From Solirubrobacterales bacterium (GTDB lineage: Bacteria; Actinomycetota; Thermoleophilia; Solirubrobacterales; Solirubrobacteraceae): a stretch of DNA of 49,536 bases. A model generated the notes under the pieces. It searched no databases. It saw only the letters and a program-made list of their open reading frames with translations, and was not told where the DNA came from. Position numbers and translations under genes: made by a program. This document shows positions 24,999 to 28,564 of the stretch, in pieces (position 1 is the first letter of the stretch; every line of letters begins with the position of its first letter). The stretch covers positions 1 to 49,536 of the forward strand of contig JAFAYV010000073.1 in assembly GCA_019240115.1 (NCBI GenBank), in the 5' to 3' direction.

Positions 24999-25868
24999 TC
25001 AGTAGAGGTTGATGCCGTTCGGCGTCAACCCCACGTTGCCGGCGACCGCGATCCCCGCGACGATACCGACCGCCGCGACGAGCGCGCAGCCTGCGATCGC
25101 CGCCGCCGGCAGTCGCCGCCGCTCGCCGACCTGGACGATCAGCCAGCCGCAGATCGCGCCGCCGACGAGCCCGCCGAGGTGGCCGCCGATCGAGATCCCG
25201 GCGACGCTCAGCGAGAAGATGACGTTGATCAGCAGCGTGATCCCCAGGCCGCTGCGCCAGATCGAGATCCCCCGGTAGTAGGCGACGACCATCAACGCTC
25301 CGAGCAGGCCGAAGAGCGCGCCCGAGGCGCCGACCGTCGGACTCATCGGTTGGAACAGAAGCGCTCCGAACGAGCCGGCGAACAGCGACGCGAAGTAGAC
25401 GACGACGAACTTGACCTTGCCGATCGCCATCTCGAGGCTCGGACCGACCAAGTACAGGAACACCATGTTGAACAGGATGTGCAGCAGCCCGTCGTGCAGA
25501 AAGGCCGCGGTCAGCATCCGGTAGTACTCGTGGTGCTGGGTGATGTAGTAGGGGCCGATCAGGGCGCCGTCGTAGTAGAGCGTCCCGACGTGAGCGCCGC
25601 TCACCCCGCCGAGCGGCGTTCCGGTCGCCGTCTCGGCGAAGAACACGAGCACGTTGATCGCGATCAGGACATGGGTCATCGACACGCCGGCCAGGCCGAC
25701 GCCCGGGCCCGAGGACGCGACCCGCCTGACCCGCGTCCGATCGCGCGAGCACTCCGGGCAGCGCATCCCGACGGGCGTCGGGGTCATGCAGTCCGGGCAG
25801 ATGGCGCGCCCGCACGAGGAGCACGCCACGCCGGTCTCACGCGAGGGGTGGCGGTAGCAGGCTGCCAT
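24999..25868 (-). CDS. rhomboid-family intramembrane serine protease with N-terminal zinc finger
   Basis: 289 residues. The first ~45 residues are a B-box-like zinc finger (CYRHPSRETGVACSSCGRAICPDCM...CPEC). A membrane core of at least six segments follows. The catalytic serine is in V-G-A-S-G-A-L-F-G and the histidine in G-H-L-G-G-L-V-G-G; the H-x-x-x-N-M helix is H-I-L-F-N-M. Rhomboids cut membrane proteins within the bilayer. The cytosolic zinc finger is common in actinobacterial forms and may recruit substrates. Confidence 0.93.
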   Translation of the reverse strand: MAACYRHPSRETGVACSSCGRAICPDCMTPTPVGMRCPECSRDRTRVRRVASSGPGVGLAGVSMTHVLIAINVLVFFAETATGTPLGGVSGAHVGTLYYDGALIGPYYITQHHEYYRMLTAAFLHDGLLHILFNMVFLYLVGPSLEMAIGKVKFVVVYFASLFAGSFGALLFQPMSPTVGASGALFGLLGALMVVAYYRGISIWRSGLGITLLINVIFSLSVAGISIGGHLGGLVGGAICGWLIVQVGERRRLPAAAIAGCALVAAVGIVAGIAVAGNVGLTPNGINLY

Positions 25869-25916
25869 CGGCAGGCTGACGGTATCAGCGGAAAATGTGG
25901 GTTTCGCAAGCGCCGC

Positions 25917-26267
25917 TCAGCGACGCGGCAGGACCCGCTTGGCTTCCTCGGCGATGTCGTGCAGCGTGTGCCCGGCGAGCTCGACCAGCCCGCTGCCCGC
26001 CATTCGGCGCGCCCGGTGCCGGCCTCGCACCCGCAACACGACGAGCGCGGTTCCCGCCCCGACGCCGATCACGGCCGCCGCGGCCGGCCGGACCCAGTTG
26101 CGCGGATCGCGCATTGCCGACATCTCCCAGGACTCGAGCTCGTCCTGGGCGAGCTCGGTGAGGCTGACGAGCGTCGCCTCCATACGCGCCGCGAGGTCCG
26201 CGGGCGGCTCGACCGGCGTCAGCGCCTGGCGCAGCAGCGCCTCGAAGTCATTCGTTGTTGTGCTCAT
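25917..26267 (-). CDS. single-pass membrane protein paired with the ECF sigma factor, possible anti-sigma factor
   Basis: 116 residues from ATG at 26267, 10 bases after the sigma stop, preceded by a G-rich ribosome site; an upstream ATG at 26285 would overlap the sigma gene. N-terminal acidic/helical cytosolic part (FEALLRQALTPVEPPADLAARMEATL), one membrane segment (VRPAAAAVIGVGAGTALVVL) and a basic tail. Position directly after a sigma factor and topology suggest a membrane anti-sigma factor, but there is no zinc HxxxCxxC motif. Confidence 0.7.
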   Translation of the reverse strand: MSTTTNDFEALLRQALTPVEPPADLAARMEATLVSLTELAQDELESWEMSAMRDPRNWVRPAAAAVIGVGAGTALVVLRVRGRHRARRMAGSGLVELAGHTLHDIAEEAKRVLPRR

Positions 26268-26277
26268 TGCCCCCTCG

Positions 26278-26832
26278 TCAGTCATCTTTGCTGTCCACGG
26301 TCTCGGAGACCATCCCCTCGAGCTGACGGATCGCGCGGTGCAGCAGCACCTTGGTTGCCCCGTCGGTTCGCCCGAGCGCGCGCGCGATCTCTCGATTATC
26401 CATCCCGAGCGCGAAGCGCATGATCAGCGCCTCCCGGCGGTCGTCGGGCAGACGGGCGACACCTTCGAGGATCCCCTTGAGCTCCTCGCGGCCCTCGACG
26501 AGCGCCTCGGTGGTGTGAGGCGCCGAGATGAGCCCGGCGTCCTCGATCGCCGACTCAGGCCTGCGCGAGCGGTCGCGATAGAAGTTCGCCGCGAGGTTGT
26601 GGGCGATGCGGATGAGCCATGGGCGCAGCGGGCGACCATCGGACTCGCGCAGCGCTCGCTCGAAGTGTCGATAGGCCTGCAGGAACGTCTGCTCGGTGAG
26701 GTCCTCGGCGTCGTGGTGGTTGCCGACGCGGTAGTAGCTGTAGGAGTAGACGTCGCGCAGGTGGCGGCGGTACAGATCCGTGAACCGAGCGTCGAGCTCG
26801 GCCTTACCGTCGGGATCGCCGTCGGCCAGCAC
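26278..26832 (-). CDS. ECF-type RNA polymerase sigma factor
   Basis: 184 residues from GTG. Region 2 is present (F-T-D-L-Y-R-R-H-L-R-D-V-Y-x-Y-S-Y-Y-R-V-G-N-x-x-D-A-E-D-L-T-E-Q-T-F-L-Q-A-Y) and region 4 ends with the helix-turn-helix L-P-D-D-R-R-E-A-L-I-M-R-F-A-L-G-M-D-N-R-E-I-A-R-A-L-G-R-T. It directs transcription of a stress or envelope regulon, with the downstream membrane protein as likely controller. Confidence 0.92.
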   Translation of the reverse strand: MLADGDPDGKAELDARFTDLYRRHLRDVYSYSYYRVGNHHDAEDLTEQTFLQAYRHFERALRESDGRPLRPWLIRIAHNLAANFYRDRSRRPESAIEDAGLISAPHTTEALVEGREELKGILEGVARLPDDRREALIMRFALGMDNREIARALGRTDGATKVLLHRAIRQLEGMVSETVDSKDD

Positions 26833-26893: not shown

Positions 26894-28564
26894 CTACGCG
26901 GCGCGGACCGAGCGCCGCGGCTTGCGCGTTGTCGGCTCGGTGACCGTCTTGGTCCAGCGCTCGGGCTCGATCCGCCCCTCGACGAGCGCCGCCAGGCCCT
27001 CGAGTGCCGGGGACTGCAGGTGCGCCTCGCGCGCCGCGGTGGCCAGCAGCGGGACCGAGTCGACCGCCTCGACCGCCTGCCCGAGCGCGCGACCGATCTC
27101 CGCTCCGGGCATGCCGCGGGCGAGCAGCTCCCCGGCGCGCCGGTTGCGCGATCCCGAGGCGACGACGGTCGCCACGAGATCGCCGGCGCCGGCCAGCCCC
27201 GCGAAGGTCTCGGGGTGTCCGCCACGGGCGGCGGCGAGCGCGTTGACCTCGGCGAACACCTTGCCGGCGGCGGCGCCGGCGATGTTCGCCCCGGCCTCAG
27301 CGGCTGCCGCGGCCGCCAGCGTCGCCGCGTTCTTGGCACACCCCGCGAGCTCGACGCCGGTGACGTCGGCGGTGACCGAGACATCGAGGTTGGCGCGGTG
27401 CAGCGCGTCGGCGAGCTGGCGCGCGAACCCCTGATCGACCGACGCGAGCACGACCGAGGCGCCGTGCTCCAGCATCTCGACGGCGTGCGCCGGGCCACCG
27501 AGCACGCCGATCGCCCGCGCGGCTGAGCGCTCGGCGGCGAACGCCGCCGGCAGCGTGCCGAGTGGGGGCACCAGGCCCTTGGAGACGACGAGGACTCCCG
27601 TGCGATTGGTGATCTGACCGCCGTGGGCGGCGAGCACCGACGGCAGGGTCTTGGCCGGGACGGTCAGGCAGACGAGGTCGTAGCCCTCCATGATGACGTC
27701 GGCGGCACGCAGGACGCGGATGCTCTCCTGAAGCGGCACGCCCGGGAGGTAGCGCACGTTCTCGCGCTCGTGCTCGATCGCGTGGGCCTGCTCGCGCGTG
27801 CGACAACCGAGGTCGACCTCGAGTCCCGCGCGGGCGAGGCAGATGGCGAGGCTCGTGCCCCAGGTGCCGGCGCCGACCACGGCCACCCGGCGCACGGGGG
27901 CCAGCCCGCCGAGCCACTCCCATTGGAGCATGACGCACGGCCAGATCCGCTCGGTGACCGCGCGGGCGAGCGACTTGGACGGCTCGGTGACCTGCGGGAA
28001 CCGCAGTACCCGGCCCGCGCGCAGGCGGACCTTGTGCGGGCGGATGCGCCAGCCGCGCCGGATCGCCTCGGTGCCGATGATCGCCACGGGCACGACCGGC
28101 GCACCGGTCTCGAGCGCCAGGCGGCCGACGCCCCGCTTGGGGTCGCCGAGCGCTCCGGGCCGCACGCGCGTGCCCTCGGGGAAGATGAGAACGATGTCGC
28201 CGCGGGCGAGGATCGTCCGCGCGGTCTCGATCGACTCGGCGTCGGACTCGCCCCGGCGCACGGGGAAGGCGCCGAGCGCATTGAGGAACCACGCCTGCCA
28301 GCGCTTGCGGAAGAGCTCCTCCTTGGCGACGTAGTGCATCGGCCGCCGCGCCATCGTCGCGATCACGAACGGGTCGAGGAAGCTGCGGTGGTTGGCGGCG
28401 ATGATCACCGGCCCGGAGGCGGGGACGTGCTCGCGCCCGATCCGCTGCATCCGGAAGTACAGGTGAAAGAACGCCTGGAAGAGCACCCGGACGATCGCGT
28501 ACAGCACCGGATTGGCGCCGTGCGCACGGGCCCGGCGGTGCAGACGCTCATGCTCGTTGGACAT
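26894..28564 (-). CDS. fusion of PlsC acyltransferase and glycerol-3-phosphate dehydrogenase GpsA
   Basis: 556 residues with no stop between the two halves. Residues ~1-225: PlsC/LPLAT domain with N-H-R-S-F-L-D (HxxxxD), F-P-E-G-T-R, and V-P-V-A-I-I-G. Residues ~228-556: GpsA, with G-A-G-T-W-G-T-S (NAD), V-S-K-G-L, A-G-C-A-K-N (catalytic Lys) and G-A-G-D-L-V-A-T-V-V-A-S-G-S-R-N-R-R-A-G. GpsA supplies glycerol 3-phosphate and PlsC makes phosphatidate from acyl-glycerol 3-phosphate, so both steps of glycerolipid supply are on one chain. A GTG at the junction (VRRVAVVG) might also allow a separate GpsA. Confidence 0.88.
   Translation of the reverse strand: MSNEHERLHRRARAHGANPVLYAIVRVLFQAFFHLYFRMQRIGREHVPASGPVIIAANHRSFLDPFVIATMARRPMHYVAKEELFRKRWQAWFLNALGAFPVRRGESDAESIETARTILARGDIVLIFPEGTRVRPGALGDPKRGVGRLALETGAPVVPVAIIGTEAIRRGWRIRPHKVRLRAGRVLRFPQVTEPSKSLARAVTERIWPCVMLQWEWLGGLAPVRRVAVVGAGTWGTSLAICLARAGLEVDLGCRTREQAHAIEHERENVRYLPGVPLQESIRVLRAADVIMEGYDLVCLTVPAKTLPSVLAAHGGQITNRTGVLVVSKGLVPPLGTLPAAFAAERSAARAIGVLGGPAHAVEMLEHGASVVLASVDQGFARQLADALHRANLDVSVTADVTGVELAGCAKNAATLAAAAAAEAGANIAGAAAGKVFAEVNALAAARGGHPETFAGLAGAGDLVATVVASGSRNRRAGELLARGMPGAEIGRALGQAVEAVDSVPLLATAAREAHLQSPALEGLAALVEGRIEPERWTKTVTEPTTRKPRRSVRAA

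What the first reader, a model, noticed from the sequence alone, without database searches (positions are those of the whole stretch)
26894..28564. In-frame PlsC-GpsA fusion
Acyltransferase and glycerol-3-phosphate dehydrogenase are joined without a stop. Both active sites appear complete. The usual intermediate step (first acylation of glycerol 3-phosphate) is not in the protein, so either channelling with a PlsY/PlsB partner or simple co-expression is possible.
Basis: partly seen in the sequence, partly recalled or inferred. Interest (0 to 1): 0.6.

Follow-up and report, generated by a model that had tools for sequence, protein, structure and literature searches.

The report
Two fused membrane-lipid enzymes
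A soil-type actinobacterium carries one protein that joins the enzyme making the glycerol-phosphate backbone of membrane lipids to an enzyme that hangs fatty acids on such backbones; the joined gene is old, shared by a whole bacterial order, and that order seems to have lost the usual enzymes for the step in between.

Summary
Window 28564..26894 (minus strand) is one 556-codon frame: a PlsC-type acyltransferase (residues 1-222) followed directly by a GpsA-type glycerol-3-phosphate (G3P) dehydrogenase (225-556), catalytic residues present in both. The full fusion is in 99 of 176 genomes of the same order (Solirubrobacterales-type) and was seen nowhere else in the class or phylum draws. In 52 of 97 fusion genomes checked, the window genome included, it is the only recognised GpsA.

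In this order plsC is duplicated: one copy is fused to GpsA, its sister often sits beside glycerol kinase. Best reading: an enzyme coupling G3P synthesis to acylation, its acyltransferase half a candidate for the missing first step. Which acylation it performs is untested.

Caution: in the window's own genus the dehydrogenase half is often eroded or lost, while the acyltransferase sites never change.

The parts
26894..28564 (-). PlsC-GpsA fusion gene (556 aa plus stop)
   Evidence: AlphaFold2 model mean pLDDT 90.4, pTM 0.84
27899..28564 (-). PlsC-type acyltransferase half, residues 1-222
   Evidence: PF01553 at residues 42-162; TIGR00530 103.7 bits against cut-off 102.95; matches solved PlsC 5kym over residues 17-183
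28370..28393 (-). HX4D acyltransferase motif, NHRSFLDP (residues 58-65)
   Evidence: N58, H59, D64 unchanged in 37 of 37 and 97 of 97
28166..28183 (-). FPEGTR motif (residues 128-133)
26897..27892 (-). GpsA-type glycerol-3-phosphate dehydrogenase half, residues 225-556
   Evidence: PF01210 and PF07479; model matches GpsA 3k96 with target TM-score 0.91-0.92
27332..27334 (-). K411, the lysine of the conserved 'KN' pair (catalytic lysine by recalled GpsA knowledge)
27893..27895 (-). internal GTG (codon 224) that could start a separate GpsA; not conserved as a start
26278..26832 (-). ECF-type sigma factor gene directly downstream, conserved neighbour
   Evidence: PF04542, PF08281; next gene after the plsC/fusion in 53 of 60 named loci
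25917..26285 (-). small protein (122 aa) with a hydrophobic stretch, no Pfam match, conserved neighbour
   Evidence: sequence
24999..25868 (-). rhomboid protease gene, conserved neighbour
   Evidence: PF01694; within 4.5 kb in 42 of 43 named loci

Best explanation
A real bifunctional enzyme of glycerolipid synthesis. The C-terminal GpsA half reduces dihydroxyacetone phosphate to sn-glycerol 3-phosphate; the N-terminal PlsC-type half, which begins with hydrophobic helices and should sit on the membrane, transfers an acyl chain to a glycerol-phosphate acceptor. The fusion arose once, at or near the base of the order, where plsC and gpsA are duplicated and PlsY is mostly lost. I think it most likely that one of the two plsC duplicates took over the first acylation (G3P to lysophosphatidate), and that the fused copy, tied to the enzyme that makes G3P, is the better candidate: dihydroxyacetone phosphate would go in and lysophosphatidate come out of one polypeptide, with the GlpK-linked sister doing the second step, or the same job for glycerol-derived G3P. 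Shown here: the fusion, its spread, the intact sites, the duplication, the PlsY/PlsB absence, the pairing of the sister with GlpK. Inferred: both activities, the membrane seat, and above all which acylation the fused half performs.
For: Fusion in 99 of 176 order genomes. It is the only PF07479 protein of the window genome and of 52 of 97 fusion genomes; in 48 of those 52 all 14 tested dehydrogenase positions are intact, among them 32 of 32 f2-family and 4 of 4 f4-family genomes. Nine acyltransferase sites unchanged in 97 of 97. PlsX in 41 of 41, PlsY in 3 of 41; PlsY 19 of 176 in the order against 192 of 223 elsewhere in the class; PlsB C-domain in 2 of 31. Some genomes (G127, G175, G121) have only two PF01553 proteins in all, so one of the two must do the first step unless an unknown family does. 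Tree: fused-type and GlpK-linked acyltransferases are sister clades (100/98), each supported 100/99, beside the single cmk-linked plsC of other orders. GlpK lies within 400 bp of a PF01553 gene in 18 of 41 genomes (match coordinates), spread over f1-f4. Precedent: mycobacterial PlsM, a PlsC-type enzyme, accepts G3P as well as lysophosphatidate (PMC10593935, passages read).
Against: The acyltransferase motifs are of the lysophosphatidate-acyltransferase kind (TIGR00530), and PlsM prefers lysophosphatidate. PlsX is kept everywhere although its known partner PlsY is gone, which the model explains only if the new first acyltransferase takes acyl-phosphate. In the window's own genus (19 genomes) 9 have no PF07479 protein at all, 3 more (G379, G371, G367) have changed catalytic sites and no second GpsA, and G210 and G391 have changed sites beside a divergent extra copy; G139, G194 and G218 appear to lack the fused-type acyltransferase too (weak best matches). 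All 13 genus members tested have glycerol kinase. So in this genus the dehydrogenase half is dispensable. In the window genome the sister acyltransferase is not next to glycerol kinase. The dehydrogenase half falls below NCBIfam's GpsA cut-offs (206.8 against 257 bits). No activity has been measured.
Confidence: 0.5

Rival explanations
1. Ordinary operon fusion. The acyltransferase half is a plain lysophosphatidate acyltransferase (second step); fusion only fixes equal amounts and membrane placement of GpsA. The first acylation is done by the GlpK-linked sister or an unrecognised enzyme.
For: LPA-acyltransferase-type motifs and TIGR00530; plsC precedes gpsA in one operon in other orders of the class (aroA-cmk-plsC-(ispH)-der-(plsY)-gpsA), so fusion of neighbours is a simple origin; the GlpK-linked sister is equally tied to a G3P-making enzyme.
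Against: Needs another first acyltransferase although PlsY and PlsB are absent; fused and sister copies are equally old duplicates, so motifs alone do not choose between them.
Confidence: 0.35
2. The acyltransferase is the functional core and the dehydrogenase half is a relic or structural tail. In many genomes it has been cut or blunted, and in the window it may be on the same path.
For: Shortened forms (acyltransferase plus a degenerate or partial Rossmann domain) in nine loci (L079, L080, L082, L148, L151, L154, L157, L158, L164); acyltransferase-only genes at the same locus with the same downstream genes; site changes in 12 of 45 fusion genomes with a second GpsA-type protein; erosion in the window's genus.
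Against: All 14 tested dehydrogenase positions are intact in the window protein and in 48 of 52 genomes where the fusion is the only GpsA; the f2 and f4 families have nothing else.
Confidence: 0.12
3. Two separate proteins are made, GpsA from the internal GTG (codon 224) or by proteolysis.
For: GTG at the domain junction in the window.
Against: Codon 224 is ATG/GTG/TTG in only 12 of 37 fusions and an SD-like word precedes it in 4 of 37; the junction is tight and modelled with high confidence.
Confidence: 0.03

Closest known systems
Separate PlsC (PF01553) and GpsA (PF01210/PF07479) enzymes; operon aroA-cmk-plsC-(ispH)-der-(plsY)-gpsA of other Thermoleophilia orders (loci L255-L266)
   Same: Same two domains, same order (acyltransferase first), same active-site residues
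   Different: There two genes with der (and often plsY) between them; here one polypeptide, PlsY mostly lost, plsC duplicated, locus next to an ECF sigma factor and a rhomboid gene
PlsM (Rv2182c / MSMEG_4248) of mycobacteria, PMC10593935 (passages read)
   Same: PlsC-type HX4D enzyme of an actinobacterium that accepts G3P as well as lysophosphatidate
   Different: Not fused to GpsA; works beside PlsB2; acyl-CoA-dependent, sn-2 specific. Orthology with the present protein was not tested
Algal bidomain phosphatase-GPDH (Dunaliella DsGPDH, 6iuy; Chlamydomonas, PMC7468427, start of abstract seen)
   Same: A G3P dehydrogenase fused to another enzyme, making glycerol; 6iuy is among the model's fold matches
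   Different: The partner is a phosphatase-type domain, not an acyltransferase; eukaryotic; the dehydrogenase half only distantly related
Other PF01553 fusions: acyl-[ACP]-phospholipid O-acyltransferase (NF006386, NF005291) and OlsF (NF052615)
   Same: A PlsC-type domain joined to another lipid enzyme (matches confined to the acyltransferase part)
   Different: Partners are not GpsA (partner types recalled); scores far below those families' cut-offs

Membership tests
PlsC-type glycerolipid acyltransferase (PF01553) | Pfam gathering score and TIGR00530 cut-off reached | tested here: met
   110.9 bits against 23; 103.7 against 102.95
PlsC-type glycerolipid acyltransferase (PF01553) | HX4D and FPEGTR motifs | tested here: met
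   nine sites unchanged in 97 of 97
PlsC-type glycerolipid acyltransferase (PF01553) | acylation of lysophosphatidate | not testable with these tools
   needs an enzyme assay
GpsA, NAD(P)H-dependent G3P dehydrogenase (PF01210 + PF07479) | both Pfam domains over cut-off, and PF20618 | tested here: met
   96.1, 88.6 and 39.8 bits against 23.1, 25 and 27.6
GpsA, NAD(P)H-dependent G3P dehydrogenase (PF01210 + PF07479) | substrate and cofactor residues (GxGxxG, K329, K411-N412, D462, T466, R473-N474, E499; roles recalled) | tested here: met
   all present in the window protein
GpsA, NAD(P)H-dependent G3P dehydrogenase (PF01210 + PF07479) | conserved (K/R)-A-A-x-x-T-R helix of canonical GpsA | tested here: not met
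   replaced in the fused and the standalone copies of the order: A429, G430, G434, K435 in the window
NCBIfam GpsA models NF000942 / NF000940 | curated cut-off reached | tested here: not met
   206.8 against 257 and 185.6 against 202; so filed as a divergent PF01210/PF07479 protein, not as a member of those models
G3P acyltransferase, PlsY | PF02660 domain | tested here: not met
   not in the protein, not in the window genome
G3P acyltransferase, PlsB | PF19277 GPAT C-terminal domain beside PF01553 | tested here: not met
   no match in the protein or window genome. PF19277 rings only in E. coli among the 14 controls, so it may miss some PlsB, but no PF01553 protein of PlsB size is present
G3P acyltransferase by activity (any family) | acylation of G3P | not testable with these tools
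   needs an enzyme assay

The most novel reading that the evidence does not exclude
The fused acyltransferase is the order's missing G3P acyltransferase: a PlsC-family enzyme that replaced PlsY, perhaps taking acyl-phosphate from the retained PlsX, so that one polypeptide carries out the steps from dihydroxyacetone phosphate to lysophosphatidate. A second, sister acyltransferase does the same or the next step for G3P coming from glycerol kinase.
Probability: 0.35. Interest if true: 0.78.

Novelty: new variant of a known kind. Interest (0 to 1): 0.58.

Why it matters
The first acylation of glycerol 3-phosphate is assigned to PlsY or PlsB families in bacteria (PMC10593935). An order of bacteria that keeps PlsX, mostly lacks both, and ties its two G3P-making enzymes to two sister PlsC-type acyltransferases points to a third solution, and the fusion names the protein to test. 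It also offers a natural experiment on gene fusion: the dehydrogenase half is kept intact mostly where nothing else can do its job, and erodes or is shed where a second copy exists, while the acyltransferase half never changes at the active-site positions tested.

Tried and rejected
Assembly error or chance run-through: rejected (99 of 176 order genomes).

Internal start for GpsA: not conserved.

The fusion joint as the exact place of a lost plsY: I considered this because plsY lies between plsC and gpsA in f8 and f9. Not kept as a claim: in f5 loci der directly precedes gpsA with no plsY between, plsC and gpsA are both duplicated in the order, and the fusion locus lies elsewhere.

dN/dS: synonymous sites are poorly usable at this GC content and divergence; only the six closest pairs are worth reading (about 0.15-0.30 for PlsC, 0.2-0.4 for GpsA); medians over 666 pairs (0.40 and 0.54) should not be read as relaxed selection.

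Fisher test of site changes with and without a second GpsA (4 of 52 against 12 of 45, p 0.015) is not corrected for shared ancestry: 6 of the 12 belong to one genus (g4) and 3 of the 4 to the window's genus.

A PlsY-GpsA fusion suspected in f6 loci (L192, L194, L195): the open frames were printed; I saw no clear fusion and did not follow it.

Whether the sister (GlpK-linked) or the fused copy is the first acyltransferase: no sequence argument found that decides it.

Rows left out: three fusion genomes (G365, G242, G378) were in neither nor because of the 80-handle limit; G280 (472 aa matched) was not counted as full length; the 97 are 96 of the 99 plus G071 (degenerate second half). L287 (the window genome's third acyltransferase) was put into the list but fell below the BLAST cut and is not in the tree. 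L042 was dropped from the fused list. In one search the 80 genomes were chosen mainly because they lacked an intact fusion, so its tally is not a random sample. The match lists are cut off; for genomes below the cut I used the best E-value of the genome row.

Papers: searches (open-licence library) found no description of a PlsC-GpsA fusion nor of PlsX without PlsY in this order; one search gave background. PMC6431249 and PMC10351704: passages seen, no fusion mentioned. PMC7203096: no hits in the part held. The other listed papers were seen only as search listings.

Full report
What is there. The reported stretch is a single minus-strand gene, ATG at 28564 to stop at 26894, 556 codons. [quoted passage not shown] Both sets of motifs are complete. 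An AlphaFold2 model from 37 fusions has mean pLDDT 90.4 and pTM 0.84; the best match to solved structures is GpsA of Coxiella (3k96, target TM-score 0.91-0.92), and the first half matches PlsC of 5kym by sequence. The junction is tight: the conserved segment RIWPxVxLQWEWLGG of the acyltransferase is followed within a few residues by the first strand of the Rossmann domain.

How widespread. In 399 genomes of the class, 176 are of the window's order (families f1-f4; my count of the rows) and 223 of other orders. A full-length open match (500 residues or more, no stop) is in 99 of the 176. No genome outside the order reached better than 2.6e-49, and in a phylum draw of 246 genomes the full fusion is in 7 of 7 order genomes and in none of the listed matches of the others (the list is cut off). 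Named carriers include Solirubrobacter deserti, Ca. S. pratensis, S. taibaiensis and Paraconexibacter antarcticus; Patulibacter minatonensis has the acyltransferase alone and Conexibacter sp. DBS9H8 a truncated form.

Where it came from. In other orders of the class plsC, der, (plsY) and gpsA are separate genes of one aroA-cmk operon. In the order there are two plsC copies: the fused type (A) and a second type (B). A tree of 62 rows puts A (25 rows, 100/99) and B (15 rows, 100/99) as sister clades (100/98) beside the single cmk-linked copy of other orders. A PF01553 gene, of the B type where it was put in the tree, lies within 400 bp of glycerol kinase in 18 of 41 genomes (match coordinates: G357, G184, G364, G081, G220, G190, G017, G246, G127, G175, G047, G053, G071, G118, G103, G226, G124, G180), in all four families, though not in the window genome. 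GpsA is also duplicated: fused (20 rows, 98/97) and standalone (19 rows, 100/96) copies of the order form one clade (100/100) on a long branch away from canonical GpsA.

What is missing. PlsX is in 41 of 41 order genomes tested. PlsY is in 3 of the same 41 and, over the class draw, in 19 of 176 order genomes against 192 of 223 others. The PlsB C-terminal domain is in 2 of 31. The window genome has neither; it has three PF01553 proteins, the fusion and two short ones. Two f4 genomes have only two PF01553 proteins each. With no recognised first acyltransferase, at least one of the two old acyltransferases is likely to act on G3P itself. Mycobacterial PlsM, a PlsC-type enzyme using G3P and lysophosphatidate, shows that this is possible (PMC10593935, passages read).

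Is the dehydrogenase half alive? In 97 fusion genomes checked for other GpsA proteins the fusion is the only one in 52. Of 14 catalytic or cofactor positions, at least one is changed in 4 of those 52 and in 12 of the 45 that have a second GpsA-type protein; nine acyltransferase positions are unchanged in 97 of 97. All 32 f2 and all 4 f4 genomes in the first group are intact. This fits an active GpsA that is free to decay when a second copy exists. Decay has gone far in places: acyltransferase plus a degenerate Rossmann domain ending near the same point, or the acyltransferase alone at the same locus.

Against this, within the window's genus. Of 19 genus genomes, 9 have no PF07479 protein at all, including G139, a single contig; three more have changed sites without a second copy (G379, G371, G367), two have changed sites beside a divergent extra copy (G391, G210), and two (G160, G388) have a truncated fusion beside a standalone copy. 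Intact fused halves are left in the window genome, G360 and G377. All 13 genus members tested have glycerol kinase, which can supply G3P from glycerol. So I take the window protein to be catalytically complete, but its dehydrogenase cannot be called essential in this genus.

How it works. Shown: sequence, anatomy, distribution, gene history, absence of PlsY and PlsB. Following from established families: GpsA makes G3P from dihydroxyacetone phosphate; PF01553 enzymes with HX4D acylate glycerol phosphates at the membrane. Inferred: the fused half acylates G3P, replacing PlsY. The main rival is a plain second-step enzyme whose fusion gives only placement and dosage. Retention of PlsX without PlsY is unexplained; it would make sense if the new first acyltransferase used acyl-phosphate.

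Compared with what is known. Both halves belong to known families (the GpsA half being divergent and below NCBIfam's cut-offs). The architecture is a new variant; the nearest analogue in kind is the algal phosphatase-GPDH (PMC7468427, start of abstract seen; 6iuy). I found no description of a PlsC-GpsA fusion in the library searched; that library holds open-licence papers only.

Verdict. Observation confirmed; interpretation partly supported. The interest lies less in the fusion alone than in its setting: a PlsX-positive order, mostly without PlsY and PlsB, in which both G3P-making enzymes are coupled to sister acyltransferases.

Noticed in passing
window 24999-26832 and L110-L183: Conserved block after the fusion: ECF sigma factor, a small protein with a hydrophobic stretch, rhomboid protease. 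The sigma gene is next in 53 of 60 named loci, mostly within 80 bp, and a rhomboid gene lies within 4.5 kb in 42 of 43. It looks like a membrane-signalling unit tied to a lipid enzyme.
   Followed up: partly
genus g1: G139, G163, G194, G218, G238, G254, G278, G312, G372: Nine of 19 genomes of the window's genus have no recognisable GpsA (PF07479), one of them a single contig; all nine have glycerol kinase. They may depend on glycerol for membrane lipids.
   Followed up: partly
L079/L152, L080, L082, L148, L151, L154, L157, L158, L164: Repeated shortened form: acyltransferase plus a degenerate or partial Rossmann domain, catalytic GpsA domain missing, mostly ending near the same point. A kept pseudo-domain or relic.
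   Followed up: partly
41 order genomes: PlsX kept in 41 of 41 although PlsY is absent in 38 of them. What uses its acyl-phosphate is open.
   Followed up: no
G210:C273, G278:C37, G372:C17, G238:C161, G254:C62, G312:C36: A further PF01553 acyltransferase lies close to a second, higher-scoring glycerol kinase in several genomes of the window's genus (coordinates).
   Followed up: no
G081 and G357 (L225-L227), with L037, L038: PlsB-type GPAT C-domains occur only here among 31 order genomes, in G357 within a few kb of a canonical GpsA and further acyltransferases; perhaps a separate storage-lipid cluster.
   Followed up: no
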